Source: Spirosoma montaniterrae (GTDB lineage Bacteria; Bacteroidota; Bacteroidia; Cytophagales; Spirosomataceae). Taken from it: a stretch of DNA of 64,000 nucleotides. The stretch's first letter is position 1, and each line of letters starts with the position of its first letter. The stretch is taken from the NCBI RefSeq assembly GCF_001988955.1, contig NZ_CP014263.1, positions 2,914,001 to 2,978,000 of the forward strand, written 5' to 3'. Under the pieces are notes generated by a model. The model ran no database searches. It saw only the letters and a program-made list of their open reading frames with translations, and had not been told where the DNA came from. Both the position numbers and the translations under genes were made by a program. Shown here in pieces: positions 564 through 57,305 of this stretch.

Positions 564-671
564 GGAACACGGATTTAACGGATAAGACGGATTGACACGG
601 ATTTATTTTCTGTCGTTACGGAGTAAATGAAAATCCGTGTTTATCCGCAGAATCCGTAAAATCCGCGTTCC
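564..671. repeat. Long imperfect inverted repeat between binding protein and permease genes
   Basis: Left arm 564-604 and right arm 631-671, both 41 nt, pair with only a few mismatches. Each arm is made of repeated short words around cggat. The right arm stops one base before the stop codon of the binding-protein gene. It can fold in the transcript between the two genes. Confidence 0.85.
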
Positions 672-672
672 A

Positions 673-1896
673 TCAATCTTTTAGTTTCAGTTTTTCCAGT
701 TTCGGAGCCAGTTTCTGCATGGCTTCGTGGGGGTCGGCACCACTGTAGAAAATAGATTGGAGCGATGCACTCGCTTCATCGAACCACCGCTCGGAGTAGT
801 TGACAAACAGCGGCTTGGCAAACGGAATGCTTTCCATGAACACCCGATACGTAGGATGCTGGTAAAAGCCGTTGGCGTTGGCTACACTCTGCCGCGTCGG
901 AAAGGCCAGCCCGGTTTTGGTCCACTCGGTCATACCCTCTTTTCCAGCGAAGTACGACAGCATCTTCCAGGCTTCGGCGGGCCGTTTGGCTTCTTTCGGA
1001 ATTACATAAGCAGTAGAAAACGCCAGCGTGGCTTTCACTTTGCCCTGTGGCAGCGGAGCCACGCCGTATTGCACGGTTGGGTAGCCATCTTTCAAATAGG
1101 GAATCAGCCAGCCGCCCGAAATGACCATTGCGGCATTTTGTCGGCCAAACACGTCGCCGTTCCAGCCCGCGCCTACGTCGGTTGGCATGGTCGCAATTTT
1201 TTTGCGGTATAAGCCTACGTAATAGTCCAGCGCACCCAGAAAAGCGGGTTCGGTCACTTTGGGGTTTCCGGCTTCATCGTGCAGGTTGCCACCGTTCTGA
1301 TGAACAAACGGCATGAGCATTTCCGGCACCGGCTCTACCACCATACCGAACTGGTCAATTTTACCATCACCGTTGGTGTCTTTTGTAAGCTTGCGGGCCG
1401 TTTGTTCGAGTTCCTGCCAGTTGGTGGGTGGTCGGCTGATACCCGCTTTGGCAAACATCGCCTTGTTGTAAAACAGCACGTAGACGTTGAAATCTTTGGC
1501 AAAACCGTAATACTTCCCCTTGTATTTATAGGCATCCCGGAAAAGCGGGAAGTAGTCGTTCAGATTAAACGACGTATCGTTCGCCACGTAGGCATCGAGT
1601 GGAGCCAGGGTATTGAAGCGCAGATAAGCGGGTGAGGTGTAGTCTTTTAGCCAGAACAGGTCGGGCGGCTGATGCGTACCGAGCATCAATTGTATTTTCT
1701 CGGAATAATTACCCGGAATGGGTTCATACTTAAACGGCACGTCGGGGTGAGCCTGCTGGAAGCTCCTCATCATACCGCGCATCAGTTTTTCTTCGGTCGG
1801 GCTTGATTGCCAGCTCGAAAATCGCGTTGCGGGCGCATCCTGCGAACAACTGCCGCAAATCAAAATCAGCAACGAACACAGGCCCACCATCTTCAT
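673..1896 (-). CDS. Extracellular solute-binding lipoprotein of a sugar ABC transporter (family 1)
   Basis: A 407-residue protein with a lipoprotein signal: hydrophobic N-terminus ending in ICGSC, with Cys17 as the likely lipidated residue. The body fits family 1 sugar-binding proteins: an early SFQQAHPDVPFKYEP segment, then LMLGTHQPPDLFWLKD, PPTNWQELEQTARKLT and the late AWKMLSYFAGKEGMTEW. It would bind a sugar or oligosaccharide in the periplasm and hand it to the permease encoded downstream at 551. It is transcribed divergently from an AraC-type gene at 2080, a likely local regulator. A TAnnTTTG box lies 26 bp upstream of the start. The ligand is unknown. Confidence 0.9.
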   Translation of the reverse strand: MKMVGLCSLLILICGSCSQDAPATRFSSWQSSPTEEKLMRGMMRSFQQAHPDVPFKYEPIPGNYSEKIQLMLGTHQPPDLFWLKDYTSPAYLRFNTLAPLDAYVANDTSFNLNDYFPLFRDAYKYKGKYYGFAKDFNVYVLFYNKAMFAKAGISRPPTNWQELEQTARKLTKDTNGDGKIDQFGMVVEPVPEMLMPFVHQNGGNLHDEAGNPKVTEPAFLGALDYYVGLYRKKIATMPTDVGAGWNGDVFGRQNAAMVISGGWLIPYLKDGYPTVQYGVAPLPQGKVKATLAFSTAYVIPKEAKRPAEAWKMLSYFAGKEGMTEWTKTGLAFPTRQSVANANGFYQHPTYRVFMESIPFAKPLFVNYSERWFDEASASLQSIFYSGADPHEAMQKLAPKLEKLKLKD

Positions 1897-1921
1897 AGAA
1901 CTATACGGATTAGAATTTGTA

Positions 1922-1929
1922 CAAAACTA
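1922..1929 (-). promoter_or_regulatory. Candidate -7 box (TAGTTTTG) for the ABC transporter operon
   Basis: On the minus strand TAGTTTTG matches the Bacteroidota TAnnTTTG consensus. It lies 26 bp before the start codon at 1896. No good TTG box is seen at the expected distance upstream, so the site may need an activator such as the divergent AraC protein. Confidence 0.45.
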
Positions 1930-2023
1930 ATGTACTAAAAAGTAGGGGATATGTTCTGGTTTTGCCAAAAACTTTATTTTTTTTGCATGAAATAGATGTT
2001 ATTTGATTTGTATAAGCTAATTG

Positions 2024-2066
2024 ATGGAACACGGCTTGTACGGATGCCGTACAAGCCGTGTTCCAT
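2024..2066. repeat. Perfect inverted repeat (20-bp arms, 3-nt loop) upstream of the AraC gene
   Basis: Arms 2024-2043 and 2047-2066 are exact reverse complements around the loop atg. The element starts about 130 bp upstream of the binding-protein gene start and ends 14 bp before the chosen AraC start. It falls inside the longest open frame of the AraC gene, which is a reason to reject the upstream start. It could be an operator or a leader hairpin. Confidence 0.9.
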
Positions 2067-2079
2067 TTTCCCTTCGTAT

Positions 2080-22019: not shown

Positions 22020-22097
22020 TTTTGACAGGATTAACAGGATAAAACAGGATTTAGATACCTATGAAAATCCTGTTTTATCCTGTTAATCCTGTCAAAA
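22020..22097. repeat. Perfect inverted repeat of the aatcctgt family between susD and the GH32 gene
   Basis: Arms 22020-22052 and 22065-22097 are exact reverse complements of 33 bp with a 12-nt loop. The words aacaggat/atcctgtt repeat about every 10-11 nt. It lies 5 bp after the susD stop and ends 20 bp before the chosen GH32 start. Related copies are at 51464-51598 and 57242-57305. Confidence 0.92.
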
Positions 22098-23686: not shown

Positions 23687-23698
23687 CGCTTCCCCCGT

Positions 23699-23750
23699 CT
23701 TTCCGCTGATTTTAGTACGCCGATTCGCGCAGACTAAAATCAGCGGAAAG
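23699..23750. terminator. Perfect 18-bp hairpin after the fructan operon
   Basis: Arms 23699-23716 and 23733-23750 are exact complements around a 16-nt loop. It starts 12 bp after the GH32 stop and lies well before parA, so it may end the operon transcript, although no clear T run follows. Confidence 0.6.
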
Positions 23751-23863
23751 CTGCGAGAAAATAGGATAGGTATGTATGCTTGCTGTTAGCGAGTTATCCC
23801 GCCAAAGTAGAGTCAATGTTCGTGCAGTTGATTGATTACCCTATCATTAATTCCTTACCTATT

Positions 23864-25777: not shown

Positions 25778-26590
25778 ATGAAGCAATTTGTTGTCGCTCT
25801 TCGTATTACGCTGTTGCTGCTTGCGTCGATTCGGTTTTCGTGGGCGCAGCAACCTGCCATTACGCCAGCTCCTACGCCCGCAGCCGTTGATTCTACCCAA
25901 ATCGATACGGACAGCATTCCCGTTCCTGCCGGGCAGGTCATTCGTGTGGGTCAATCCGAACTAATAAGCGATTCAAGTGCATTGGTCCGGCCCGACACAG
26001 CCCGCCTGACAGCAAAACAGGAAGCTCAGATTCGCAGGATTGTTCCGCGCGTTGCTACGCTTCGGTCGCTGATGCTGCCCGGTTTGGGGCAAGCCTATAA
26101 CAGGCAGTATTATAAGATTCCGTTCATCTACGCCGGTTTCGGAGTGATGGGCTATTTGTTTGTGCGGTATCGGGGCCTGGCCCGTGAAGCCGCCGAAGGT
26201 TATCGACTCCTGCTGTTCGGCAACATGATTCGGCCCGAGCAACGAGCCACGCTTAGTCCTACGCAGGTGCCGGGTATTTTGATTAATCCGGCCGAAGTAA
26301 AGATACCTGCCGTGTACGACAAACCCGAACAGGTGATAATTGGCGAGGGGGTTTTTCGGTCGGCAGCCAATGCAAAAAATGCCTATGATACATATCGCCG
26401 GTATCGCGACCTGAACGTAATTTTGTCTATCGCACTCTACGCGCTCAATGCCGTTGAAGCCAACGTATCGGCGCACCTAAAAACCTTTGACCTCTCTGAC
26501 GACATTTCGATGCGCGTCGAACCCAGCATATTGCCCATGCCCAGCACCGGCCTCGTTCCCGGTGTTCGGGTTGCACTAACATTCAAATGA
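25778..26590 (+). CDS. DUF5683 membrane protein of the parAB-dapB cluster
   Basis: 270 residues with a signal peptide (ends near RFSWAQ) and a proline-rich linker. The core LRSLMLPGLGQAYNRQYYKI and IYAGFGVMGYLFVRYR form membrane-associated hairpins, and YDTYRRYRDLNVILSIALYA and LNAVEANVSAHLKTFD follow. These are typical of DUF5683, a family regularly found between parB and dapB in Bacteroidota. Its function is unknown. Its stop codon is also the first three bases of an inverted repeat. Confidence 0.85.
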   Translation: MKQFVVALRITLLLLASIRFSWAQQPAITPAPTPAAVDSTQIDTDSIPVPAGQVIRVGQSELISDSSALVRPDTARLTAKQEAQIRRIVPRVATLRSLMLPGLGQAYNRQYYKIPFIYAGFGVMGYLFVRYRGLAREAAEGYRLLLFGNMIRPEQRATLSPTQVPGILINPAEVKIPAVYDKPEQVIIGEGVFRSAANAKNAYDTYRRYRDLNVILSIALYALNAVEANVSAHLKTFDLSDDISMRVEPSILPMPSTGLVPGVRVALTFK

Positions 26591-26674
26591 AAAATGTAGA
26601 ATGAAAAATGAAAAATGTTATAGTCTTTCACTAAAGCATTGGTAATCCCTTCACTTTTCATTCTACATTTTTCA
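26588..26674. repeat. Inverted repeat of the gaaaaatg family between DUF5683 and dapB
   Basis: Arms 26588-26612 and 26650-26674 (25 bp, one mismatch) are built from the word gaaaaatg/gaaaagtg. The first three bases are the stop codon of the upstream gene and the right arm ends 13 bp before the dapB ATG. Relatives lie at 44356-44435 and 52382-52461. Confidence 0.88.
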
Positions 26675-26687
26675 CTTTTCATTACCT

Positions 26688-30787: not shown

Positions 30788-30848
30788 GTTTTCCATAAAA
30801 AGCGAATGCCATTACTTGACGTAATGGCATTCGCTTTTTATGGAAAAC
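30788..30848. terminator. Perfect 28-bp hairpin between convergent methyltransferase and helicase genes
   Basis: Arms 30788-30815 and 30821-30848 are exact complements with a 5-nt loop (ttgac). A and T runs inside the stem (ccataaaaagcg) give weak poly-U on both strands. It lies 4 bp after one stop and 14 bp before the other, a good bidirectional terminator. Confidence 0.85.
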
Positions 30849-30862: not shown

Positions 30863-33055
30863 TTACCGCGCAATTTCAACGTTCACTCGGCGACCTTTGA
30901 TGGTGTTGCCTTCCATAGCATCGACCACCCGATTAGCCACGTCTTTCGGTACGTCAACGTAGGTGTGCTTGTCGAAGATATCGATGCTCCCGATGGTGTT
31001 GCCAGGAATGTTAGCCTCACCGGCAATGGCACCGACAATATCGCCCGGACGCACAAAATCACGCCGACCAATGCTCACCATCAGGCGGGTCATGTTGGCT
31101 TCGCGCTCGCGCGGAGCCCGCTTCTCGTTACGGTCGCGATCTCCCCCACGGCGATCCTCGCGGTCGCCAAAGCGCGGGCGATCTGCTCCCTCACTACGGC
31201 CAAAACGGCCCTGATCACGGTCATTACCCCGGCCCCGGTCGTCGCGGTCGCCGAAACGGCCCCGACCTTCAGCGCGGTCGCCAAAACGGCCACGGCCTTC
31301 GGTGCGGTCGCCGAAACGCCCTCCCCGGTCATCGCGGTCGCCGTAGCGATCTCCTCCCCGACGGTCTGGTCCTTCGCGACGGCGGTCGTCGTCAAGGCCA
31401 AGATTCTGGTCGGCGAATTCGTTTTTCTCTAAGCCCATGCTGCGTTTCACGAGCGCGGCCACAACCTGCTCGGTCGAGAAACCGGCGTGGTGCAACTGCG
31501 TCAGCGTATCTTCATAGAGGTTCAAATCCTTGCTCTCCTGAATGGTTTGCTGAACCTGCTCGATAAAGCGGGCTTTGCGCACACCCACGATGTCTTCAAA
31601 CGACGGAATAACGCCCTTTTCGACCCGTACTTTGGTATACGACTGAATTTCGCGGAAACGGTATTTTTCGTCACGACCTACCATCGAGAACGCCCGGCCC
31701 GACTTACCCGCCCGGCCTGTACGGCCAATACGGTGTACGTAATATTCTTCATCGAGCGGAATATCGAAGTTGATAACCGCGTCGACATCGTCGACGTCGA
31801 TACCGCGTGCCGCTACGTCGGTGGCAACCAGAATGCTGGTTGTACCTGAGCGGAACTTGCCCATTACGTTATTACGCTGTGCCTGCCGCAGATCGCCGTG
31901 CAAGCCTTCGGCCTGATAGCCCCGAATTTGCAGGTCTTCAACAATCTCATCGACTTTGCGCTTTGTATTACAGAACACCAGCATCAGTTTGAGGTCGTAC
32001 ATGTCGATCAACCGGCACATCACCTCAACTTTAGCTTTCGGCTTCACTTCAAAATAGACCTGCTCGATGTTGGTGTTGGTCAGTTCTCTCTTGACCACCT
32101 TCACCAACACAGGGTCTTTCTGAAATTTCTGCGTAATCTGCATAATCGGCTTCGACATCGTAGCCGAGAACAGGATTGTCTGCCGCTCTTCGGGCATATC
32201 TTCCAGTATGCTTTCAATATCTTCACGGAAGCCCATGTCCAGCATTTCGTCGGCCTCGTCAAGAATCATCATCTTCACGTTGTCGAGCTTGAGCGTGTTA
32301 CGCTCCATGTGGTCCATAACACGGCCTGGCGTACCAATCACGATGTGTACGCCCGACTTGAGTGAGCGAATCTGACGTTCGATAGAATCACCGCCGTAGA
32401 TAGCTTCGATACGTACACCGCGCTTGTATTTAGCAAGCTTACGGATTTCCTCCGACACCTGTAGGGCCAGTTCGCGGGTAGGGCAAAGAACAAGCACCTG
32501 CACCGAACGGTCCTGCGTATCGATCAAATCGAGAGCAGGAATACCGAATGCGGCTGTTTTACCCGTTCCCGTCTGGGCCTGACCAATTACATCGCGACCA
32601 GCCAGAATGGGCGGAATCGCTTCGGCCTGAATCGGCGACGGGCTAACGAAGCCCATATCGGTCACGGCCTGCAAAATTTCGTCTGAAATGGCAAGGTCAG
32701 AGAACAGCGGCACAGCCGGTTCGGTTTTGGCCGGAGCCGTTGCCGAAGCAACTGGCTGTGCTATTAAAACGGGCGACACTTCGGCCTGTACGGGTTCAGT
32801 CTGAACTAATTCTTCCTGAACTTGCTCAGCCTGAACTGGCTCGTTTTCAACAATTTCCGCCATCGGCATTTCGTCGATTGCGGGGGTGTCCTCCGTTTTT
32901 TTAGTGCGGGGTTTAGCTGCTTTTTTCTTTGGCGTTTCGGCAGTAGCGTCGGTTGCGGGCGTAGCGGCAGCGGCCATTTGCTGGGCTACCTGTTCAATTT
33001 GGTCGAGCGTCAGGAGATCGTCCTGTGCATCGGCCTTTGTTTTTTTCGTTTTCAT
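30863..33055 (-). CDS. DEAD-box RNA helicase with DbpA-type RNA-binding end
   Basis: 730 residues from the ATG at 33055 (MKTKKTKADAQDDLLTLDQI). A longer frame to 33139 runs into the leader and is rejected. About 130 N-terminal residues are rich in Ala, Glu and Pro. The core has AQTGTGKTAAFGIPALDLID, PTRELALQV, DEADEMLDMGF, SATMSKP, VATDVAARGIDVDDVDAVIN and HRIGRTGRAGKSG. A long Arg-Gly-Asp-rich stretch follows, and the last 75 residues match the DbpA RNA-binding domain. It resembles DeaD/CsdA helicases of ribosome assembly and cold adaptation. A promoter about 310 bp upstream implies a long leader. Confidence 0.93.
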   Translation of the reverse strand: MKTKKTKADAQDDLLTLDQIEQVAQQMAAAATPATDATAETPKKKAAKPRTKKTEDTPAIDEMPMAEIVENEPVQAEQVQEELVQTEPVQAEVSPVLIAQPVASATAPAKTEPAVPLFSDLAISDEILQAVTDMGFVSPSPIQAEAIPPILAGRDVIGQAQTGTGKTAAFGIPALDLIDTQDRSVQVLVLCPTRELALQVSEEIRKLAKYKRGVRIEAIYGGDSIERQIRSLKSGVHIVIGTPGRVMDHMERNTLKLDNVKMMILDEADEMLDMGFREDIESILEDMPEERQTILFSATMSKPIMQITQKFQKDPVLVKVVKRELTNTNIEQVYFEVKPKAKVEVMCRLIDMYDLKLMLVFCNTKRKVDEIVEDLQIRGYQAEGLHGDLRQAQRNNVMGKFRSGTTSILVATDVAARGIDVDDVDAVINFDIPLDEEYYVHRIGRTGRAGKSGRAFSMVGRDEKYRFREIQSYTKVRVEKGVIPSFEDIVGVRKARFIEQVQQTIQESKDLNLYEDTLTQLHHAGFSTEQVVAALVKRSMGLEKNEFADQNLGLDDDRRREGPDRRGGDRYGDRDDRGGRFGDRTEGRGRFGDRAEGRGRFGDRDDRGRGNDRDQGRFGRSEGADRPRFGDREDRRGGDRDRNEKRAPREREANMTRLMVSIGRRDFVRPGDIVGAIAGEANIPGNTIGSIDIFDKHTYVDVPKDVANRVVDAMEGNTIKGRRVNVEIAR
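31105..31390 (-). repeat. Coding repeat: RFGDR-rich tail of the helicase
   Basis: The helicase tail repeats units such as GRFGDR and RGRFGDR about five times, with Asp/Arg spacers. The DNA shows matching near-repeats of ggccgtttcggcgaccgc type. Such tails usually bind RNA without sequence preference. The repeats could change in number by slippage. Confidence 0.75.
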
Positions 33056-33367
33056 AAACTTGGAAAAATAGATAATAAACCCTCCAAGCGAAGACGAGTG
33101 TGTACCGGTGAACGGCGCGATACTGCGAGAATTGCCCAACGAACGATGCCCAACGACCCAACAAGGACCAACAGCCCCCTAACCAACCACGGGGGAGAAG
33201 ACAGCGAAAATTGACGATTAGCCCACGCGCAAGTGTTCCGTCACAGCGGAACGTCCACACAGAAAACCCATCCAGTACATCCGTACAGTAGTTCTGGCAG
33301 ACCCAACTCAGCGTGTAAAACAGGAGAAGACCAGAAACGCGACGGATGTCGCTTGTAAAATCTGGTG
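33056..33367 (-). promoter_or_regulatory. Long 5' leader of the DEAD-box helicase gene
   Basis: The 462-bp gap 33056-33517 holds no convincing gene. The candidate promoter at 33368-33399 would give an untranslated leader of about 305 nt before the helicase ATG. A small GC hairpin (33175-33179 with 33191-33195) lies inside. Long leaders are known in cold-shock mRNAs including helicases, so a regulatory role is plausible. Confidence 0.45.
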
Positions 33368-37468: not shown

Positions 37469-37554
37469 GCAGAAAAATAAGCAAAAATTTATACGATAAG
37501 CTCTTTTGCACGGAAAGCCGGGCTTTTCCACGTACTTATATCATCTTGAGTTAA

Positions 37555-37669
37555 CTATGGCGTATTGCTGACGCGAGTGAGACGCAAAGGGTTGCGTCTC
37601 TACGCCGGACGGTCAACTGTAGAGACGCAACCCTTTGCGTCTCAGCCATGCGTCAGCAATACGGCATAG
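37555..37669. repeat. Long inverted repeat of the gagacgcaa family in a divergent promoter region
   Basis: Arms 37555-37603 and 37619-37669 (49-51 nt) pair well, with small mismatches near the middle. Inner units gagacgcaaa and tttgcgtctc form further short hairpins. It lies between two genes that point away from each other, so it is not a terminator. A relative lies at 48388-48491. Confidence 0.88.
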
Positions 37670-37702
37670 GCGATTCCATTTGGTATTACTATATTCGTTG
37701 CT

Positions 37703-39315: not shown

Positions 39316-39413
39316 TTCACCCCACCCCAACCCCTCCCCGTTAGGGAGGGGCTAAGCATAGATGCTTCCAGCGGAAGCCCCTCCCTAACGGGGAGGGGTT
39401 GGGGTGGGGTGAA
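39316..39413. repeat. Perfect 38-bp inverted repeat, G/C-rich family copy 2
   Basis: Arms 39316-39353 and 39376-39413 are exact complements. Each arm contains the palindromic core cccctcccgttagg-like text seen at 16107-16198. The 22-nt loop contains its own hairpin (aagcat/atgctt). It fills the gap between fbaA and the convergent gene, ending 12 bp from that gene's stop. Confidence 0.92.
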
Positions 39414-42059: not shown

Positions 42060-42094
42060 CAACTGAGGAGAGAAAGATTTTCTCTCCTCAGTTG
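42060..42094. terminator. Perfect 16-bp hairpin between convergent genes
   Basis: Arms 42060-42075 and 42079-42094 are exact complements with a 3-nt loop. It spans the whole gap between the stops at 42055 and 42095. It is a likely bidirectional terminator. Confidence 0.75.
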
Positions 42095-42866: not shown

Positions 42867-44354
42867 ATGCAAAATCAATCACAGACGCTCAACGGCATGA
42901 CCCAGTCTCAGGGACAGCTTTCAGGCAACTTCTCGTTTAGTGATTACCAGACTGAAAACTTTTTCGATGAAATGTTCGACGGGCAAACGCAGGTACGGGC
43001 CGGATATGCCCCGTTCCGTCAGCGCGTTGAGCAGTTGAGCCGTGAAGATATTGTAGCACGACAGCACGCAGCCGAACGAGCGTTGATGAGCATGGGCATC
43101 ACGTTCAACGTTTATTCTGAAGGCGAAGGCACCGAGCGCATCATGCCTATCGACATCATTCCGCGCGTGATCGAATCTGCCGAGTGGGACCGTATGGAAG
43201 CCGGTTTAGTGCAACGGATTAAAGCCCTGAACCTGTTCATCGACGATGTTTACAATGAACAGCGGATTTTGAACGACGGCGTTGTGCCCCGCGAGCTGAT
43301 CGAAACCAGCAAATCGTTTCTCAAACCCTGCCTCGGCGTGAAGCCCCCCAAAGACATTTGGTGCCACATTACCGGCACCGACCTGATTCGGGGCGACGAC
43401 GGGCAGTTTATGGTGCTGGAAGATAACCTCCGCTGCCCGTCGGGGGTATCGTACATGCTCGAAAACCGCGAACTTACCAAGCAGACGTTCCCCGAAGTGC
43501 TGGCCCAAACGGGTGTTCGGCCTGTGTCGGACTACCCCATGCGGCTGCTCCAAATGCTCCAGTTTATCGCCGACCGGCCTAATCCAACGGTGGTAGTACT
43601 GACGCCGGGCATTTACAACTCGGCCTATTTCGAGCATTCGTATCTGGCCCAGCAAATGGGCGTCGAACTGGTTGAAGCGCGGGATTTGGTTGTATCGGGC
43701 GGTTATGTGAAAATGCGCACAACCAAAGGTTTCCAAATCGTTGACGTGATTTACCGGCGCATCGATGACACGTTTCTGGACCCGAAAGCCTTCAATCCTG
43801 ACTCGATGATTGGCGTTCCGGGCATTTTTGAGGTGTATAAGAAAGGTCGCGTTGCGCTGGCCAATGCCCCCGGCACGGGCGTGGCCGACGATAAAGTGAT
43901 TTACGCTTACGTGCCGCGCATTATTCAATACTACCTCGGCGAAGAACCCATTATCCCGAACGTGCGGACGTATATCTGCGGTGAAGACGAAGACTGCCAG
44001 TATGTACTCGATAACATCGCGCAACTGGTGGTAAAAGAAGCCAACGAAGCGGGCGGCTATGGCATGTTGATCGGCCCGAAAGCATCGGCAGAAGAACACG
44101 AACTGTTTCGGGATAAAATCAGAGCCAACCCACGTAACTACATCGCCCAACCCACTATTTCGCTCTCGCGGGTGCCAACCCTTGTGGGCGACCATGCCGA
44201 AGGCCGGCACGTTGACCTGCGTCCATACATTCTTTACGGCGACGGCGTCAACGTAATTCCCGGTGGCCTTACCCGCGTGGCCTTGCGCAAAGGTTCGCTT
44301 GTGGTCAACTCCTCGCAGGGCGGTGGCGGAAAAGATACGTGGGTGCTGTACTGA
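42867..44354 (+). CDS. Circularly permuted ATP-grasp type 2 protein
   Basis: 495 residues. Family signatures are clear: YAPFRQRVEQLSREDIVARQ, ERIMPIDIIPRVIESAEWDR, NLFIDDVYNEQRIL, LVLEDNLR-like VLEDNLRCPSGVSYMLENRE, and late GGYGMLIGPKAS and ISLSRVPTLVGDHAEGRHVD. These proteins are thought to make amide or peptide bonds with ATP. They usually sit with an alpha-E protein, a transglutaminase-like protein or an NTN-hydrolase gene. None of these is next to it here, where a glycosyltransferase follows, so the substrate is open. Confidence 0.92.
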   Translation: MQNQSQTLNGMTQSQGQLSGNFSFSDYQTENFFDEMFDGQTQVRAGYAPFRQRVEQLSREDIVARQHAAERALMSMGITFNVYSEGEGTERIMPIDIIPRVIESAEWDRMEAGLVQRIKALNLFIDDVYNEQRILNDGVVPRELIETSKSFLKPCLGVKPPKDIWCHITGTDLIRGDDGQFMVLEDNLRCPSGVSYMLENRELTKQTFPEVLAQTGVRPVSDYPMRLLQMLQFIADRPNPTVVVLTPGIYNSAYFEHSYLAQQMGVELVEARDLVVSGGYVKMRTTKGFQIVDVIYRRIDDTFLDPKAFNPDSMIGVPGIFEVYKKGRVALANAPGTGVADDKVIYAYVPRIIQYYLGEEPIIPNVRTYICGEDEDCQYVLDNIAQLVVKEANEAGGYGMLIGPKASAEEHELFRDKIRANPRNYIAQPTISLSRVPTLVGDHAEGRHVDLRPYILYGDGVNVIPGGLTRVALRKGSLVVNSSQGGGGKDTWVLY

Positions 44355-44355
44355 G

Positions 44356-44435
44356 TGAAAAATGAAAAGTGAAGAATGAAAAGTGAGTCAACATTGCTTA
44401 CTTTTCGCTTTTCATTCTTCACTTTTCATTTTTCA
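44356..44435. repeat. Inverted repeat of the gaaaaatgaaaagtgaa family
   Basis: Arms 44356-44386 and 44405-44435 (31 bp, one mismatch). The word of 7 nt (gaaaaat, gaaaagt, gaagaat) repeats along each arm. The left arm starts one base after a stop codon and the right arm ends 8 bp before the TTG start of the next gene. Confidence 0.9.
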
Positions 44436-44443
44436 TTCTTCAC

Positions 44444-45478: not shown

Positions 45479-48391
45479 ATGCGATTTACGTGTACTAATG
45501 GGCTGTTCGCCCTTTTTTTGACGGCTTTGACGTGGCCTATGGTTAGTCAGGCTACGCACCTGCGGGCGGGCGAAATCACGACCCGGCGCCTGTCGGCTAC
45601 TTCACTCACCTATGAAATAACGTTCACTGGATATTATGACGAAACCCCCGGTGGAGGGCGAGCCGCAGCCGATCAGCAAACATCTGTGTGGTTTTGTTTC
45701 GGTGATGATACGTCTGTAGAAGTACAGCGTCTATCACGGACATTTATCAACAACCGGACGTCATCGATCAACGTCTACCGGGTGGTGCATACGTATCCGG
45801 GGCCAGGACCTTACACGATTGGCGTAACAATTCCCAATCGAAACAACGACACGAAAAATCTGCCCCCTCCTGATAGGTCAGATGAAATCCGTTTCTACGT
45901 TTCGACAACGATTCTGATCAACGCGGCTCTACAGGTCAACTCCACGCCCGTCATGCTCAACCCACCGTTGGACTCGGGCCGCGTTGGTCAACGCTTCTGC
46001 CACAACCCGGCTGCCTTCGACGCCGATGGCGACTCGCTCGCCTTCCGCCTGAGCGTACCTAAAGAAGGCCGTGAAGACCGATGCCCCCGCAGTCGCGACA
46101 TTCCGGCCTACCAGGACCCCACCCGCTTCTCCCGCACCAGCGAGACCGGCGGCTCCCCCACCTTCACCATCGACCCCCGAACCGGCGAGTTGTGCTGGGA
46201 CGCCCCCGGCGAAGAAGGCCAGTTCAACTTCGCCTTCATCGTCGAAGAATGGCGAAACGGCGTGCTCATCGGCGAGATCACCCGCGACATGCAGATCATC
46301 GTCGTCGACCAGACCAACCGCAGACCCCTCCTCCAGCCACTGCCCGAACTCTGCCGCGAAGCTGGCTCGCTCATCTCCGTGCCCGTATCAGCCGCCGACC
46401 CCGACAACAACCGCGTCATCATCTCGGGATTCGGGGGCGTCTTCAACGTCGGACCCGATGGACGACCCCTGGCTGCGGGCGAGCTGATCGCCCCCGACTA
46501 CGCCCGACTTTCCAGCAACGGCCTGCCCCAGAACCAGCCCGCCACCTCGACCTTCACCTGGCAGACCAACTGCAACCACATCCGCAGTGCCCCCTACGAC
46601 GTCACCTTCAAGGTCGGTGACGTGCCCACCAGCCGCTCGGCCACCAGTCTGGTCGCCTTCCAGACCCTGCGCATCCGCATCGTGGGGCCCTCGGTCAAAA
46701 ACCTCACCGCCCGCCCCACGGCCACCACCCAGGGCCGGGCCATCCAGCTTAGCTGGTCGCCCTACGCCTGCGCCCCCACCGGAGCCGAGGGCCAGCCCAC
46801 CCGCCTGCTCGTCTACCGCCGGGAAGGCTGTACCCCCGTAACGTCGGAGACGTGCACCACCGGCCCGCCACCGGGCTACAGTCAGATCGCTGAGCTGCCC
46901 GTCACGGCCACCACCTTCACCGACACGGCCAGCCTGCGCCGGGGCATCGCCTACAGCTACGTGCTGGTGGCCCGCTACCCCGACCGCAACGGCGGCTTCA
47001 ACGGCGGCATGAGCCTGCCCTCGGCCCCCGTCTGCCAGCAACTGCCCCTGCTCATGCCCGTCATCACCCAGGTCACCATCGACTCCACCGACGCCCAGCG
47101 CGGCCAGATCACCCTCCGCTGGTCGAGACCCATCGGCCTGGCCCCCGGCGACCTGACCGGCCCCTTCCAGTACCGCATCCAGCGCGCCACCGGCCTCGAC
47201 GGCACCGCCTTCCAGCCCCTGACGACCATCACCACCACCCTCGAGCCGACCACCGTCGATACCGTCTTTGTCGACAGGGGCAGCAGCACCTCGGCCCTCA
47301 ACACCACGGCCAACGCCTACCGCTACCGGATCGAGTTCTTCTACACCACCAACGGCCAGTTCACCCGGCTCGACGTCACCGAAGCCGCCAGCAGCGTGCG
47401 GCTCAGCAGCGGCCCCGGCCCCCAGCGCAGCATCGCCCTGCGCTGGCAAACCAACACCCCCTGGTCCAACGACAACCAGCCCCACCGCATCTTCCGCAGC
47501 CGCAGCGGCCCCAACGGGCCCTTCAACGAAATCGCCCAGGTCAACGTCCAGGCACCGCCCAGCTACGTCTTCACCGACGATGGCTCCGACCGCATCACTG
47601 CCGACGGCAACACCAGCCGCCCCCTCTCCGCCGACTCTGCCTACTGCTACCGGGTGCTGACCCGGGGCCGCTACACCGATGCCCAACTGACGGGCTTAGG
47701 CTCGCTGACCAACCTCAGCCAGACGCTCTGCGCCCAGCCCGCCGACACCACCCGCCCCTGCCCGCCCGCCCTGCGGCTCGACAGTCTCAACTGCGCCAGT
47801 GTGCAGGCCGAGCAGTTCTGCACCCAGACTAATTTCCAGAACCAACTCCGGTGGAGTGCCACCAGCGGCCCCACCTGCGACAGCCAGGTGGTGGGCTACC
47901 GCATCTACTACGGTCGCTACGAGCAGGACAGTCTGCGGCTGCTGACGGAGGTGGCCACGCCTACCACCAGCTACGCCCACCAGAACCTGACGACGGTCTC
48001 GGGCTGCTACTACGTGACGGCCCTGAGCCGACGGGGCCAGGAGAGCCGCCCCTCCAACCGGGTCTGCAACAACGCCTGTGCGGTGTTTGCCCTGCCGAAT
48101 GTGTTCACCCCCAACGGGGATGGCAAGAATGATGTCTTCAGTGCGTTGCGCTGCCCGGCTTTTGTGGAGGAGGTGCGACTGGTGGTCTACAACCGGTGGG
48201 GGGCCAAAGTCTATGAAGGAACCAGCCGGGAGCTAAGCTGGGATGGCAGAAGCAGCGAGGGGCGGGAGTTGCCCACGGGTTTGTACTACTACGAGGTGCA
48301 GGTGCGGTTCAGTTATGTAGACCGCAACGCCCCGCCCAACGTCTACAAGGGCTGGGTGCAAATCCTCAGAGAAGGCAACACCCAGGGGTAG
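45479..48391 (+). CDS. Giant secreted protein with type B (gliding-motility-associated) sorting domain, copy 1
   Basis: 970 residues. A signal peptide ends before ATHLRAGEITTRR. The first 200 residues contain a PKD-like segment (SSINVYRVVHTYPGPGPYTI), followed by cadherin-like AFDADGDSLAFRLS, fibronectin-type-III-like repeats, and a C-terminal domain starting NVFTPNGDGKNDVF and ending LPTGLYYYEVQVRF. The last is the type B sorting domain for the type IX secretion system. From residue 207 to the stop it is nearly identical to copy 2. Bases after 46099 are markedly richer in G and C, with C in most third positions. It is probably an adhesin or surface filament component. Confidence 0.88.
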   Translation: MRFTCTNGLFALFLTALTWPMVSQATHLRAGEITTRRLSATSLTYEITFTGYYDETPGGGRAAADQQTSVWFCFGDDTSVEVQRLSRTFINNRTSSINVYRVVHTYPGPGPYTIGVTIPNRNNDTKNLPPPDRSDEIRFYVSTTILINAALQVNSTPVMLNPPLDSGRVGQRFCHNPAAFDADGDSLAFRLSVPKEGREDRCPRSRDIPAYQDPTRFSRTSETGGSPTFTIDPRTGELCWDAPGEEGQFNFAFIVEEWRNGVLIGEITRDMQIIVVDQTNRRPLLQPLPELCREAGSLISVPVSAADPDNNRVIISGFGGVFNVGPDGRPLAAGELIAPDYARLSSNGLPQNQPATSTFTWQTNCNHIRSAPYDVTFKVGDVPTSRSATSLVAFQTLRIRIVGPSVKNLTARPTATTQGRAIQLSWSPYACAPTGAEGQPTRLLVYRREGCTPVTSETCTTGPPPGYSQIAELPVTATTFTDTASLRRGIAYSYVLVARYPDRNGGFNGGMSLPSAPVCQQLPLLMPVITQVTIDSTDAQRGQITLRWSRPIGLAPGDLTGPFQYRIQRATGLDGTAFQPLTTITTTLEPTTVDTVFVDRGSSTSALNTTANAYRYRIEFFYTTNGQFTRLDVTEAASSVRLSSGPGPQRSIALRWQTNTPWSNDNQPHRIFRSRSGPNGPFNEIAQVNVQAPPSYVFTDDGSDRITADGNTSRPLSADSAYCYRVLTRGRYTDAQLTGLGSLTNLSQTLCAQPADTTRPCPPALRLDSLNCASVQAEQFCTQTNFQNQLRWSATSGPTCDSQVVGYRIYYGRYEQDSLRLLTEVATPTTSYAHQNLTTVSGCYYVTALSRRGQESRPSNRVCNNACAVFALPNVFTPNGDGKNDVFSALRCPAFVEEVRLVVYNRWGAKVYEGTSRELSWDGRSSEGRELPTGLYYYEVQVRFSYVDRNAPPNVYKGWVQILREGNTQG
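46099..48391 (+). repeat. Near-identical 2.29-kb tandem duplicate segment, copy 1
   Basis: Positions 46099-48391 align to 49171-51463 with constant offset 3072 and no gaps. Only about six residues differ over 764. Homology ends exactly at the stop codon on the 3' side. Confidence 0.93.
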
Positions 48392-48491
48392 AGACGCAAG
48401 ATGTTGCGTCTCCCTCGCGTCAGCCCTTCGTGTCTCTCTGGCGTCAGCAGGAACCATCCGGCACCAGAGACGCAACATCTTGCGTCTCTAC
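48388..48491. repeat. Inverted repeat of the gagacgcaa family after copy 1
   Basis: Arms 48388-48412 and 48467-48491 are exact complements of 25 bp. The stop codon of the first giant gene lies in the left arm. Two gcgtcagc words lie in the loop, as at 37555-37669. Confidence 0.92.
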
Positions 48492-48553: not shown

Positions 48554-51463
48554 ATGCGATTTATCTATACAATCGGGCTATTCGCTCTTTTTTTAGTGGC
48601 TTTGGTTGAGCCAGTTACCAGTTATGCCACGCACGTTCGGGCAGGCGAAATTACAACCCGACGTATATCGGCCACGTCGCTTACCTACGAGATTACTCTG
48701 ACGGCCTATTACGATGAGGTAGATGGTGCATTAGCTGCGGCACAGGGAGCGGACGAATATACTATATGCTTTGGCGATGGTACATCGGCACTGGTTCGGC
48801 GAGATCCAAAGCGATTTATCAATGGCCGGACGTCATCGATCAACGTCTACCGGGTGGTGCATACCTATCCGGGGCCGGATACATATACGGTTAGTGTGAC
48901 GATTCCCAACCGAAACAACGACACGAAAAATCTGCCGCCAGCCAATCAGTCGCAGAATATTTCTTTTCACGTTTCGACAACGATTCTGATCAACCCCGGC
49001 CTGGGGCTCAACTCCACGCCCGTCATGCTCAACCCGCCCTTGGACTCCGGGCGCGTCGGCCAACGATTCTGCCACAACCCGGCTGCCTTCGACGCCGATG
49101 GCGACTCGCTCGCCTTCCGCCTGAGCGTGCCCAAAGAAGGACTGGCCGAGACCTGCCCCCGTAGCCGCAACATTCCGGCCTACCAGGACCCCACCCGCTT
49201 CTCCCGCACCAGCGAGACCGGCGGCTCCCCCACCTTCACCATCGACCCCCGAACCGGCGAGTTGTGCTGGGACGCCCCCGGCGAAGAAGGCCAGTTCAAC
49301 TTCGCCTTCATCGTCGAAGAATGGCGAAACGGCGTGCTCATCGGCGAGATCACCCGCGACATGCAGATCATCGTCGTCGACCAGACCAACCGCAGACCCC
49401 TCCTCCAGCCACTGCCCGAACTCTGCCGCGAAGCTGGCTCGCTCATCTCCGTGCCCGTATCAGCCGCCGACCCCGACAACAACCGCGTCATCATCTCGGG
49501 ATTCGGGGGCGTCTTCAACGTCGGACCCGATGGACGACCCCTGGCTGCGGGCGAGCTGATCGCCCCCGACTACGCCCGACTTTCCAGCAACGGCCTGCCC
49601 CAGAACCAGCCCGCCACCTCGACCTTCACCTGGCAGACCAACTGCAACCACATCCGCAGTGCCCCCTACGACGTCACCTTCAAGGTCGGCGACGTACCCA
49701 CCAGCCGCTCGGCCACCAGTCTGGTCGCTTTCCAGACCCTGCGCATCCGCATCGTGGGGCCCTCGGTCAAAAACCTCACCGCCCGCCCCACGGCCACCAC
49801 CCAGGGCCGGGCCATCCAGCTTAGCTGGTCGCCCTACGCCTGCGCCCCCACCGGAGCCGAAGGCCAGCCCACCCGCCTGCTCGTCTACCGCCGGGAGGGC
49901 TGTACCCCCGTAACGTCGGAGACGTGCACCACCGGCCCGCCACCGGGCTACAGTCAGATCGCTGAGCTGCCCGTCACGGCCACCACCTTCACCGACACGG
50001 CCAGCCTGCGCCGGGGCGTCGCCTACAGCTACGTGCTGGTGGCCCGCTACCCCGACCGCAACGGCGGCTTCAACGGCGGCATGAGCCTGCCCTCGGCCCC
50101 CGTCTGCCAGCAACTGCCCCTGCTCATGCCCGTCATCACCCAGGTCACCATCGACTCCACCGACGCCCAGCGCGGCCAGATCACCCTCCGCTGGTCGAGA
50201 CCCATCGGCCTGGCCCCCGGCGACCTGACCGGCCCCTTCCAGTACCGCATCCAGCGCGCCACCGGCCTCGACGGCACCGCCTTCCAGCCCCTGACAACCA
50301 TCACCACCACCCTCGAGCCGACCACCGTCGATACCGTCTTTGTCGACAAAGGCAGCAGCACCTCGGCCCTCAACACCACGGCCAACGCCTACCGCTACCG
50401 GATCGAGTTCTTCTACACCACCAACGGCCAGTTCACCCGGCTCGACGTCACCGAAGCCGCCAGCAGCGTGCGGCTCAGCAGCGGCCCCGGCCCCCAGCGC
50501 AGCATCGCCCTGCGCTGGCAAACCAACACCCCCTGGTCCAACGACAACCAGCCCCACCGCATCTTCCGCAGCCGCAGCGGCCCCAACGGGCCCTTCAACG
50601 AAATCGCCCAGGTCAACGTCCAGGCACCGCCCACCTACGTCTTCACCGACGATGGCTCCGACCGCATCAGTGCCGATGGCAACACCAGCCGCCCCCTCTC
50701 CGCCGACTCTGCCTACTGCTACCGGGTGCTGACCCGGGGCCGCTACACCGACGCCCAACTGACGGGCTTAGGCTCGCTGACCAACCTCAGCCAGACGCTC
50801 TGCGCCCAGCCCGCCGACACCACCCGTCCCTGCCCGCCCGCCCTGCGGCTCGACAGTCTCAACTGCGCCAGTGTGCAGGCCGAGCAGTTCTGCACCCAGA
50901 CTAATTTCCAGAACCAGCTCCGGTGGAGTGCCACCAGCGGCCCCACCTGCGACAGTCAGGTGGTGGGCTACCGCATCTACTACGGTCGCTACGAGCAGGA
51001 CAGTCTGCGGCTGCTGACGGAGGTGGCCACGCCTACCACCAGCTACGCCCACCAGAACCTGACGACGGTCTCGGGCTGCTACTACGTGACGGCCCTGAGC
51101 CGACGGGGCCAGGAGAGCCGCCCCTCCAACCGGGTCTGCAACAACGCCTGTGCGGTGTTCGCCCTGCCGAATGTGTTCACCCCCAACGGGGATGGCAAAA
51201 ATGACGTCTTCAGTGCGTTGCGCTGTGCGGCTTTTGTGGAAGAGGTGCGACTGGTGGTCTACAACCGGTGGGGGGCCAAAGTCTATGAAGGAACCAGCCG
51301 GGAGCTAAGCTGGGATGGCAGAAGCAGCGAGGGGCGGGAGTTGCCCACGGGTTTGTACTACTACGAGGTGCAGGTGCGGTTTAGTTATGTAGACCGCAAC
51401 GCCCCGCCCAACGTCTACAAGGGCTGGGTGCAGATCCTCAGAGAAGGCAACACCCAGGGGTAG
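48554..51463 (+). CDS. Giant secreted protein with type B sorting domain, copy 2
   Basis: 969 residues from the ATG at 48554 (MRFIYTIGLFALFLVALVEP), matching the start of copy 1; the frame extends eight codons upstream. The domain order is that of copy 1, and the sorting domain again begins NVFTPNGDGKNDVF. The N-terminal 200 residues are only about 70 percent identical to copy 1, including a different stretch around EVDGALAAAQGADEYTICFG. From residue 206 onward they are almost the same. Different N-termini on a shared stalk and sorting end suggest different ligands. Confidence 0.88.
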   Translation: MRFIYTIGLFALFLVALVEPVTSYATHVRAGEITTRRISATSLTYEITLTAYYDEVDGALAAAQGADEYTICFGDGTSALVRRDPKRFINGRTSSINVYRVVHTYPGPDTYTVSVTIPNRNNDTKNLPPANQSQNISFHVSTTILINPGLGLNSTPVMLNPPLDSGRVGQRFCHNPAAFDADGDSLAFRLSVPKEGLAETCPRSRNIPAYQDPTRFSRTSETGGSPTFTIDPRTGELCWDAPGEEGQFNFAFIVEEWRNGVLIGEITRDMQIIVVDQTNRRPLLQPLPELCREAGSLISVPVSAADPDNNRVIISGFGGVFNVGPDGRPLAAGELIAPDYARLSSNGLPQNQPATSTFTWQTNCNHIRSAPYDVTFKVGDVPTSRSATSLVAFQTLRIRIVGPSVKNLTARPTATTQGRAIQLSWSPYACAPTGAEGQPTRLLVYRREGCTPVTSETCTTGPPPGYSQIAELPVTATTFTDTASLRRGVAYSYVLVARYPDRNGGFNGGMSLPSAPVCQQLPLLMPVITQVTIDSTDAQRGQITLRWSRPIGLAPGDLTGPFQYRIQRATGLDGTAFQPLTTITTTLEPTTVDTVFVDKGSSTSALNTTANAYRYRIEFFYTTNGQFTRLDVTEAASSVRLSSGPGPQRSIALRWQTNTPWSNDNQPHRIFRSRSGPNGPFNEIAQVNVQAPPTYVFTDDGSDRISADGNTSRPLSADSAYCYRVLTRGRYTDAQLTGLGSLTNLSQTLCAQPADTTRPCPPALRLDSLNCASVQAEQFCTQTNFQNQLRWSATSGPTCDSQVVGYRIYYGRYEQDSLRLLTEVATPTTSYAHQNLTTVSGCYYVTALSRRGQESRPSNRVCNNACAVFALPNVFTPNGDGKNDVFSALRCAAFVEEVRLVVYNRWGAKVYEGTSRELSWDGRSSEGRELPTGLYYYEVQVRFSYVDRNAPPNVYKGWVQILREGNTQG
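49171..51463 (+). repeat. Near-identical 2.29-kb tandem duplicate segment, copy 2
   Basis: Partner of 46099-48391. Differences include GVAYS for GIAYS, DKGSS for DRGSS, PTYVF for PSYVF, and CAAF for CPAF. Confidence 0.93.
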
Positions 51464-51598
51464 TCAGAACCAGGATTAGCCCCGATTGACAAGATTAATG
51501 CAAGATTCTACGTTGCGCTTATTAGGCAACAGAGCAGCAAATAAGCGCAGCGTAGAATCCTGTTTAATCCTGAAAATCCCTGCTAATCCTGGTTCTGA
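51464..51598. repeat. 60-bp-arm inverted repeat filling the gap between copy 2 and yebC
   Basis: Left arm 51464-51523 (60 nt) and right arm 51540-51598 (59 nt) pair with scattered mismatches. Words around aatcctg recur, as at 22020-22097. It begins on the base after one stop codon and ends one base before the other, convergent one. Confidence 0.9.
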
Positions 51599-52381: not shown

Positions 52382-52461
52382 TGAAAAGTTAAGAGTGAAA
52401 AGTGAGCTATTGATGAAGAAGCGTTTGTTCTAACATTTCACTTTTCACTCTTAACTTTTCA
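52382..52461. repeat. Inverted repeat of the gaaaagtgaa family overlapping the lysA end
   Basis: Arms 52382-52405 and 52438-52461 are exact complements of 24 bp. The right arm lies inside the last codons of lysA; the left arm starts 17 bp from the yebC start. Confidence 0.9.
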
Positions 52462-55799: not shown

Positions 55800-55825
55800 C
55801 TCGGCGAGACATTTGCTTTGCTCGG

Positions 55826-55899
55826 CGAGACATTCGTCTCGTCGCAATTAACTGCGGATATATATCCGCTTTCAATACGTCGGGACATTTGTCCCGACG
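55826..55899. repeat. Cluster of three small hairpins between nagB and the purine permease gene
   Basis: Stem 1: cgagac 55826-55831 with gtctcg 55836-55841. Stem 2: palindrome gcggatatatatccgc at 55854-55869. Stem 3: cgtcgggac 55878-55886 with gtcccgacg 55891-55899. A direct repeat of ctcggcgagacatt lies at the start. The permease frame runs through it, but the real start is at 55922. Confidence 0.8.
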
Positions 55900-55921
55900 A
55901 GCCGATGACCCAACCCGAAGC

Positions 55922-57229
55922 ATGAGACCTGAAACAAACACGCGCACTGAAATCCTCGCTGGTATTTCAACCTTTCTGGCAACGATGTACATCATCGTGG
56001 TCAATCCGGCGATTTTGAGTCAGGCGGGTTTGCCATTTAGCGGAGTGCTGACAGCCACGGTACTGCTGTCATTTTTCTGTAGCCTGATGATGGGCCTGTA
56101 TGCCCGCAACCCACTGGTGGTGGCGCCGGGCATGGGCCTGAATGCGTTTTTCACGTTCACTGCCGTAAAAGGCATGGGCCTAACACCCGACGTTGCGCTG
56201 GGGGCTGTATTTTGGGCGGGCATACTGTTTCTGCTGCTGTCGCTGCTGAACGTTCGCTCGGCCATTGTCCGGATTATTCCGCTGCCGTTGCGCTACGCCG
56301 TTTCGGCGGGTATCGGGCTGTTTATCACCTTGATAGGGTTTGAGAACGCCAAGTTTATTGTGGCAAACCCGGCCACGCTCGTCGGTATTGCCCGCTTCAA
56401 CGACCCTATTGTGCTGACGTTTGTGTTTGGGTTGCTGCTCACGGCGGTGCTGGTGGTTCGGAACGTGCCGGGGGCTATTATCATTGGCATTGTGCTGACT
56501 ACGCTGGCGGCCTGGCCCATTGGGCGGTATTGGGGCGATTCATCGGCGGTGAATTTCGGGCTGAAAACCCTCGTCAATGTTCAGGGCATTGTGGCCGCGC
56601 CCGATTTTTCGCTGGTTGGCAAACTCGATCTGGTAGGCTCGCTGAAATGGTCGCTCTGGCCGGTTATTTTCGCCTTCGCCTTCACTGACCTCTTCGACAG
56701 CCTGAGTACCTTTGTGGGCGTAGCCGAAGCGGGTGGTTTGCAGGACGACAACGGCCAACCGCGTAACCTGAACCGCTCGCTGCTGACCGACGCCGTAGCG
56801 ACCACGCTGGCGGGGGTCTTCGGCACAAGTCCCGGCACGGCCTATATTGAGTCGGCGGTGGGCATTGCGCAGGGCGGGCGCACGGGGTTAACGGCCATTG
56901 TAGCGGGCTGTTGTTTTCTGCCGTTTCTGTTTCTATCGCCCCTGTTGTCAATGATTCCGGCCATCGCCACGGCTCCGGCTCTGGTACTGGTGGGTGCGTT
57001 CATGATCAAGCCCGTTACGCGCATCGACTGGAGTCAGTTAGACGATGCCCTGCCCGCGTTTCTGGCTTTAGTGCTGATTCCGTTCAGCTATTCTATCACG
57101 CAGGGGCTGATTTGGGGCTTTCTGTCGTGGACGGTTATAAAAGTGGCCGTTGGTAAAAGCCGCGACGTGCCACCCGGCCTGTGGTTGGTCGATGCCTTTT
57201 GCGTGCTGGCCCTAACAGCGGGGCATTGA
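55922..57229 (+). CDS. NCS2-family purine permease (AzgA-like)
   Basis: 435 residues from the ATG at 55922 (MRPETNTRTEILAGISTFLA); an upstream ATG would add residues encoded by hairpins. About 12-14 hydrophobic helices. Signatures include TMYIIVVNPAILSQAG, VVAPGMGLNAFFTFT, IFAFAFTDLFDSLSTFVGVA and GTSPGTAYIESAVGIAQGGR, all typical of adenine/guanine/hypoxanthine permeases. It would import a purine base with protons. The next gene encodes an exported nucleosidase that releases adenine, which fits. Confidence 0.93.
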   Translation: MRPETNTRTEILAGISTFLATMYIIVVNPAILSQAGLPFSGVLTATVLLSFFCSLMMGLYARNPLVVAPGMGLNAFFTFTAVKGMGLTPDVALGAVFWAGILFLLLSLLNVRSAIVRIIPLPLRYAVSAGIGLFITLIGFENAKFIVANPATLVGIARFNDPIVLTFVFGLLLTAVLVVRNVPGAIIIGIVLTTLAAWPIGRYWGDSSAVNFGLKTLVNVQGIVAAPDFSLVGKLDLVGSLKWSLWPVIFAFAFTDLFDSLSTFVGVAEAGGLQDDNGQPRNLNRSLLTDAVATTLAGVFGTSPGTAYIESAVGIAQGGRTGLTAIVAGCCFLPFLFLSPLLSMIPAIATAPALVLVGAFMIKPVTRIDWSQLDDALPAFLALVLIPFSYSITQGLIWGFLSWTVIKVAVGKSRDVPPGLWLVDAFCVLALTAGH

Positions 57230-57241
57230 TTTTCTTAGACA

Positions 57242-57305
57242 GGATTTACAGGATAAAACAGGATTTAGTTTTTGCCACAGTGCTCCTGTTTCATCCTGTA
57301 AACCC
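57242..57305. repeat. Inverted repeat of the aatcctgt family between permease and nucleosidase genes
   Basis: Arms 57242-57263 and 57284-57305 (22 bp, two mismatches). The word acaggata/atcctgta repeats in both arms, and an extra partial repeat continues to 57320. Confidence 0.8.

What the first reader, a model, noticed from the sequence alone, without database searches (positions are those of the whole stretch)
564..57305. Most intergenic gaps hold long inverted repeats, often abutting or overlapping stop codons
At least eighteen gaps carry an inverted repeat, many with arms of 20-60 bp (for example 564-671, 22020-22097, 28712-28812, 30788-30848, 39316-39413, 51464-51598). Several arms are perfect. 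Five of eight convergent gene pairs have one, eleven or so lie between genes of the same direction, and two lie in divergent promoter regions. Simple terminators do not need such stems and do not belong in promoters. The elements may control mRNA ends, be targets of a nuclease or recombinase, or be short mobile repeats without a gene of their own. It resembles REP/MITE biology but the arms are not those of a known family that I recognise.
Basis: partly seen in the sequence, partly recalled or inferred. Interest (0 to 1): 0.75.

Follow-up and report, generated by a model that had tools for sequence, protein, structure and literature searches.

The report
Self-matching palindromes behind stop codons
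Many gaps between genes in this bacterium hold DNA palindromes sitting right behind stop codons; they come from many unrelated repeat families, come and go between sister species, and their two halves appear to be kept alike by copying one from the other at the DNA level.

Summary
In detail: 17 long inverted repeats (IRs) in the window against 0-1 in each of ten shuffles, and 139 against 0 in 864 kb of the same genome, probably a Spirosoma. In the window 15 of 17 touch a stop codon. They are not one family: 61 of 139 overlap arrays of 7-10 bp tandem units (eight families), others are REP-doublet-like, a few are plain terminators. 115 of 134 unit arrays have an inward mirror arm, 0 an outward one. 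Across the genus the same stop codon carries different hairpins or none. In sister species G018/G001 both-arm compensatory changes are 15-fold above chance (30 v 1.9) and 4 of 15 loops are inverted; over both sister pairs 18 of 34 compensatory changes are transversions. Arm mismatches show no G.U preference (100 v 103 A.C). This fits DNA template switching between the arms better than RNA selection. Best reading: dispersed palindromes that settle behind stop codons, sometimes take a terminator's place, and are homogenised by template switching. RAYT transposases can explain only REP-like families. Not shown: how the tandem-unit families spread, or any effect on RNA.

The parts
564..671 (.). 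palindrome, family G (ACGGATT units)
2024..2066 (.). perfect 20-bp palindrome inside the start of an AraC-like gene; not at a stop codon
16107..16198 (.). palindrome, family I (CCCCAACCCCTCCC, inner GGGGAGGGG)
22020..22097 (.). palindrome of ACAGGAT units between susD-like and GH32 genes
23690..23759 (.). non-repetitive hairpin behind the GH32 stop
26585..26677 (.). palindrome, family A (AGTGAAA/AAATGAA heptads) between DUF5683 and dapB; contains the DUF5683 stop codon
27419..27524 (.). palindrome, family B (AGTGATG heptads); contains the dapB stop codon
28712..28812 (.). palindrome, family C (GTTGTAAA octads), convergent gap between signal peptidase and UDG genes
30788..30848 (.). perfect non-repetitive hairpin, convergent gap
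37533..37691 (.). composite palindrome, family J (GAGACGCAA..TTGCGTCTC with outer GCTGACGC), divergent gap
39316..39413 (.). palindrome, family I, perfect 38-bp arms, convergent gap
42060..42094 (.). short terminator-like hairpin, convergent gap
44353..44438 (.). palindrome, family A; overlaps the stop codon of the ATP-grasp gene
48388..48491 (.). family J palindrome behind the first of two near-identical CHU_C genes
51464..51598 (.). family F palindrome (CAGGATTA units), fills the convergent gap between the second CHU_C gene and yebC
52382..52461 (.). family A palindrome containing the stop codon of the decarboxylase-like gene on the minus strand
57239..57308 (.). palindrome of ACAGGAT units

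Best explanation
The hairpins are several families of short dispersed palindromes that accumulate directly behind stop codons (shown), are gained, lost and exchanged there between species (shown for positions; the act of moving is inferred), and sometimes occupy the place of the gene-end terminator (inferred). Once present, the two arms evolve in concert because DNA polymerase switches template between them during replication, so a change in one arm is copied into the other and the loop between them is now and then inverted (signature shown, enzymology inferred). Some families are REP doublets that RAYT-type transposases can have spread; how the tandem-unit families spread is unknown.
For: Stop anchoring: 55 of 79 co-directional IRs lie within 15 nt of the stop, 25 of 79 within 15 nt of the next start; in 26 roomy gaps 21 are nearer the stop, p=0.0025. 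IR per kb of remaining gap: convergent 2.89, co-directional 1.58, divergent 0.51; convergent v divergent gaps p=0.004. Fixed polarity: 115 of 134 non-redundant tandem-unit arrays (at 77 places; the two arms of one palindrome count as two arrays) have an inward mirror arm, 0 an outward one (by family). Turnover: behind yebC 19 of 23 genus genomes with enough flank have a hairpin, 8 plain and 11 long by a crude rule; between DUF5683 and dapB 6 of 18, others with gaps down to 1 bp. Sister species: of 39 G018 IRs 29 map to G001: 24 shared, 4 scored absent, 1 different; a clean filled/empty site is L229:5662-5754. Window paralogues 45479-48391 and 48554-51463 (96.95% over 2656 aligned bases) stop matching exactly at the stop codon, where one has a family J and the other a family F palindrome. 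Concerted arms: 30 compensatory pairs v 1.9 expected in G018/G001, 4 v 0.45 in G010/G007; 18 of 34 are transversions v 545 of 1758 changes in flanks, p=0.009. Loop inversion in G018/G001: 4 of 15 loops of at least 5 nt v 1 of 240 mismatched loop pairs, e.g. ACTCTGC v GCAGAGT at L233:19523. No RNA wobble bias in co-directional gaps: G.U 100, A.C 103.
Against: No tandem-unit element was seen to move, and target-site duplications were not scored. The 4 'absent' calls include one gap that still holds a single REP (G018 17927). At the level of gap counts, convergent plus co-directional v divergent is not significant (p=0.21). Arms within a copy are mostly not more alike than the best match to another copy, so arms are not remade at every copy. 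16 of 77 unit-array places overlap no IR at my threshold, and of six exact CAGGATTWACAGGATT hits in the own genome one lies in such an IR: one-armed or decayed copies exist. Compensatory v single-arm transversion share is only p=0.09. In G010/G007 0 of 4 loops of at least 5 nt are inverted, with 1 of 16 in its control. One of the four inverted loops is only 5 nt (4 of 5 match). In divergent gaps, where no sense strand is defined, mismatches are G.U 16 v A.C 6 on the plus strand, p=0.05. Recombination or gene conversion between arms would leave similar marks.
Confidence: 0.65

Rival explanations
1. They are transcription terminators or 3'-end stabilising stems, kept by selection for RNA pairing; repeat content is incidental.
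For: Position at stop codons; a hairpin behind yebC in 19 of 23 genomes, 8 of them plain stems; compensatory changes.
Against: G.U equals A.C mismatches on the sense strand of co-directional gaps (100 v 103); 18 of 34 compensatory changes are transversions; loops invert; only 13 of 79 co-directional IRs have a T-rich 3' edge; hairpins in the DUF5683-dapB gap come and go; 14 of 102 divergent gaps hold one.
Confidence: 0.25
2. All are REPINs or MITEs moved by RAYT (Y1) transposases.
For: Three Y1_Tnp genes in the genome, each with REP-type hairpins beside it, one (L141) with hairpins on both sides; the hairpins beside a weakly matching Y1_Tnp gene of G006 (L343) resemble hairpins of G018 by eye.
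Against: G001 and G018 have no Y1_Tnp match at E 0.001 yet carry 50 and 39 IRs per 400 kb with differences between them; tandem-unit arms hold no REP-like inner hairpin by eye. Past loss of the gene is possible.
Confidence: 0.2
3. The palindromes are made in place: a short tandem array behind a stop codon is copied inverted by template switching, with no mobile element.
For: Marks of template switching; many different unit sequences; arrays usually mirrored.
Against: Polarity is fixed (0 of 134 arrays have an outward mirror); in families E, F and G the best other copy resembles an arm more than its own mirror arm does (medians 85 v 62, 91 v 73, 92 v 75); family F-like hairpins are found in other genera and another class of the phylum.
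Confidence: 0.2
4. Chance or assembly artefact.
For: None found.
Against: 139 v 0 in a shuffle; present in separately sequenced relatives.
Confidence: 0.01

Closest known systems
REP / REPIN / BIME elements with RAYT transposases (PMC3116915, PMC3733652; passages read)
   Same: Short extragenic inverted pairs forming hairpins, several families per genome, some next to Y1_Tnp genes; GTAG REPs are reported to give stop codons to neighbouring genes, as here.
   Different: 61 of 139 IRs overlap arrays of 7-10 bp tandem units, with no inner hairpin by eye; two hairpin-rich species have no Y1_Tnp match; anchoring at stop codons, whereas REP doublets in Pseudomonas are described as randomly placed in extragenic space.
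Quasipalindrome template-switch mutation (PMC8604942 passages; PMC8794818 abstract and start of introduction)
   Same: Arm homogenisation, multi-base compensatory changes, loop (spacer) inversion.
   Different: Described there for yeast coding genes and for RNA genes; here in dispersed intergenic palindromes of a bacterium. PMC8604942 cites earlier work on short inverted repeats in proteobacteria (Lavi et al. 2018), which I could not read.
Intrinsic bidirectional terminators (recalled)
   Same: Position between convergent genes; some yebC hairpins are GC stems with A/T tracts.
   Different: Only 13 of 79 co-directional IRs have a T-rich 3' edge; median arm 35 nt; different sequences at the same site.
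Heptameric TAACTGA direct repeats of Beggiatoaceae, Cyanobacteria and some Bacteroidetes (PMC4679880; passages read)
   Same: Intergenic 7-bp tandem units, some overlapping stop codons.
   Different: Direct repeats, mostly just upstream of start codons; here inverted pairs behind stop codons.

Membership tests
REPIN | two inverted REPs forming a hairpin in extragenic DNA | tested here: met
   Families I-L, by eye; not met by the tandem-unit families
REPIN | linked or co-resident RAYT (Y1_Tnp) | tested here: inconclusive
   Met for family L and two further REP types in the own genome; 20 of 25 genus genomes have a match, G001, G003, G015, G018, G021 do not
REPIN | GTAG or CGTC tag at one end of the REP | tested here: inconclusive
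   By eye: family J reads GTAGAGACGC, one RAYT-side type reads CGTCGCG, family L begins GTAA; tandem-unit families show neither
MITE | target-site duplication and insertion into an empty site | tested here: inconclusive
   Filled/empty sites between sisters; duplications not scored
Intrinsic terminator | GC stem followed by a U tract | tested here: not met
   As a class: 13 of 79 co-directional IRs have at least 6 T in the 12 nt across the 3' edge; met by some yebC hairpins of relatives
Template-switching quasipalindrome | arm homogenisation beyond chance | tested here: met
   30 v 1.9 expected in G018/G001; 4 v 0.45 in G010/G007
Template-switching quasipalindrome | spacer inversion | tested here: met
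   4 of 15 loops v 1 of 240 mismatched pairs in G018/G001; 0 of 4 in G010/G007
Known Rfam RNA | match to an Rfam family | tested here: not met
   0 matches in the window at the gathering score

The most novel reading that the evidence does not exclude
A class of self-homogenising mobile palindromes, built from short tandem units with fixed inward polarity, settles at stop codons and replaces gene-end terminators, so that terminators of a whole genus are exchanged by unrelated repeats while the hairpin at the site persists.
Probability: 0.35. Interest if true: 0.75.

Novelty: new variant of a known kind. Interest (0 to 1): 0.58.

Why it matters
Compensatory changes are often read as proof of RNA structure. 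In this genus many intergenic stems covary, yet transversion-rich compensation, inverted loops and the lack of a G.U bias point to a DNA copying process, so the usual inference could mislead. The same set makes the turnover of gene ends, and the spread of tandem-unit palindromes without a known transposase, directly testable with several strains of one species.

Tried and rejected
1. 'Private barcode' idea (each copy's arms match only each other): rejected; the mirror arm beats the best other copy in only 11 of 26 (A), 7 of 19 (B), 5 of 16 (C), 8 of 25 (D), 2 of 15 (H), 1 of 13 (E), 0 of 11 (F), 1 of 11 (G) arrays (one mirror against the best of many others).

2. Arm periodicity as a definition of the tandem-unit class: only 47 of 139 arms are significantly periodic at p<=0.01 (periods 7: 18, 8: 18, 10: 9, 5: 2), so I used unit scans instead.

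3. SbcCD loss explains palindrome tolerance: 17 of 25 genus genomes have an SbcD match over the cut-off, the own genome not. IR density looked higher in the six samples without one (11.0-17.0 v 3.5-9.8 per 100 kb in three with one), but at three matched genes in 25 genomes it is equal (29.1 v 28.8 per 100 kb, p=0.91). Not supported.

4. Rfam: nothing at the gathering score. RAYT as the general mover: not enough. IR density around the GH32 relatives, mostly other taxa, is 0 to 10.6 per 100 kb (small samples); at the same three genes outside the genus 8.3 per 100 kb (23 loci).

5. Exact-motif searches in the phylum: CAGGATTWACAGGATT in 8 of 148 genomes, CWGAAYCAGGATTWRC in 19 of 198. Of 30 loci, 11 have an inward mirror, all from G049 and G054, one genus; the other 19 do not, and most look like chance hits. 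Of 17 loci, 6 have an IR at the site.

6. Papers: seven searches, of which I saw listings, showed no description of these hairpins in Spirosoma; they cover open-licence PMC only. PMC10434271 (inverted repeats in bacterial genomes; passages): its main text has no word beginning 'cytophag'. Lavi et al. 2018 (PMC5941160) is not held and was not read.
Full report
What is there. The window is G000:C1:2914001-2978000 of a 5.80-Mb one-contig genome. That it is Spirosoma is inferred: the best named relative of its GH32 protein is Spirosoma utsteinense (68%), followed by a Flavobacterium (66%) and a Spirosoma MAG (63%), and the same-genus genomes are 5.1-10.3 Mb. An einverted-like scan finds 17 IRs in the window against 0 or 1 in each of ten shuffles. 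In 864 kb of the same genome there are 139 against 0, median arm 35 nt, mean arm identity 0.91. 15 of the 17 window IRs touch a stop codon, and several overlap or contain it (26585, 27419, 44353, 48388, 52382).

Anatomy. The arms fall into many families (letters and grouping are mine, by eye). Tandem-unit families: A AGTGAAA and B AGTGATG (7 bp), C GTTGTAAA and D TTGAATGA (8 bp), E ACACAGAGATGC, F CAGGATTA, G ACGGATT (about 9-10 bp), H CAACAGT (7 bp). REP-doublet-like families, whose arms contain a smaller hairpin: I CCCCTCCCC..GGGGAGGGG, J GAGACGCAA..TTGCGTCTC, K TTCGGGAC.., L GTAACGCGGCTGG... Some are plain terminator stems. 47 of 139 arms are significantly periodic on their own. Scanning for the units without asking for a mirror finds 134 non-redundant arrays at 77 places in 864 kb; 115 arrays have an inward mirror arm and none an outward one; 61 of the 77 places overlap one of the IRs, and 61 of the 139 IRs overlap an array. 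So the units come mostly as two-armed elements of fixed polarity, with some one-armed or decayed copies. A module GCTGACGC recurs inside several families.

Position. 55 of 79 co-directional IRs lie within 15 nt of the upstream stop codon; in roomy gaps 21 of 26 are nearer the stop than the next start. Relative to remaining gap length, convergent gaps hold 2.89 per kb, co-directional 1.58 and divergent 0.51; by gap counts convergent v divergent is p=0.004, convergent plus co-directional v divergent p=0.21.

Turnover. Behind yebC, 19 of 23 genus genomes (own included; 24 loci given, one with too little flank) have a hairpin starting in the first 60 nt, from a plain GC stem with A/T tracts to heptad palindromes. 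Between DUF5683 and dapB 6 of 18 have one (19 given, one without DUF5683 in the locus), of different families, and others have gaps down to 1 bp. Behind lepB 11 of 18 have one (19 given). Inside the window two adjacent CHU_C proteins (94% identical; 96.95% over 2656 aligned DNA bases) stop matching exactly at the stop codon; one is followed by a family J palindrome, the other by a family F palindrome. Between G018 and G001, 29 of 39 G018 IRs could be mapped: 24 shared, 4 scored absent, 1 different; the reverse gives 30 of 50 mapped: 22 shared, 5 without hairpin, 3 different. In G010/G007, 9 of 12 mapped: 5 shared, 2 absent, 2 without hairpin; reverse 5 of 7: 4 shared, 1 without. Read in detail, one filled/empty site is clean (L229:5662-5754) and one 'absent' site still holds a single REP.

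Concerted arms. In the 24 shared G018/G001 hairpins, 499 pairs are unchanged, 51 changed in one arm, 30 changed in both arms and stayed complementary, 3 changed in both and did not, 6 were mismatched in both species and 4 fell in gaps; chance predicts 1.9 complementary double changes. In G010/G007 there are 4 against 0.45. 18 of the 34 compensatory changes are transversions, against 545 of 1758 changes in the flanks (p=0.009) and 24 of 69 single-arm changes (p=0.09). Of 15 G018/G001 loops of at least 5 nt, 4 are inverted, against 1 of 240 mismatched loop pairs; in G010/G007 0 of 4 against 1 of 16. The clearest are L233:19523 (ACTCTGC v GCAGAGT) and L233:7463 (17-18 nt); the others are L276:9071 and the short L232:2903. 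In the own genome, mismatches between arms of co-directional elements are G.U 100 times and A.C 103 times on the sense strand; convergent 27 v 25, divergent 16 v 6 on the plus strand. So pairing of the transcript does not seem to be what keeps the arms matched. Arm homogenisation with spacer inversion is the published mark of template switching between inverted repeats (PMC8604942, passages; PMC8794818, abstract). Recombination between the arms cannot be excluded.

Movers. The own genome has three Y1_Tnp genes. One (L141) has family L hairpins on both sides; the other two have other REP hairpins beside them. 20 of 25 genus genomes have a match, but G001 and G018 do not. REP doublets with a neighbouring RAYT are thus REPIN-like (PMC3116915, passages). 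The tandem-unit families have no mover that I could identify. Family F-like hairpins with a similar outer end are also found in two genomes of one genus in another class of the phylum, and a weaker one in G159, of the same class.

Verdict. Dispersed palindromes at gene ends, a known kind, in a new form: tandem-unit arms, fixed polarity, stop-codon anchoring, and arm homogenisation with loop inversion. Function in RNA is untested. The genus name, the terminator role and the spread of the tandem-unit families are inferences.

Noticed in passing
window 45479-48391 and 48554-51463: Two adjacent CHU_C (type IX secretion signal) proteins of 970 and 969 aa, 94% identical; nearly all differences lie in the first ~220 aa, and the DNA match begins only about 263 bases in.
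   Followed up: partly
G000:C1:5304953-5307499 (and G001, G015, G019): Four of the eight genus genomes without an SbcD match over the cut-off carry a frame of about 2500-2650 aa with weak SbcC similarity; possibly a replacement nuclease-ATPase.
   Followed up: no
L135:1366-1461: A GTCATGCTGAGCTTGTCGAAGCATCTC palindrome behind yebC in another family of the order; similar motifs appear in Hymenobacter loci L037 and L040 and in L188.
   Followed up: no
G003:C1:4374572-4375281: yebC of this relative matches in two overlapping pieces, one with an in-frame TGA.
   Followed up: no
window 31243-31343: 30-bp tandem repeat (3.4 copies) inside the open frame 30863-33139 on the minus strand.
   Followed up: no
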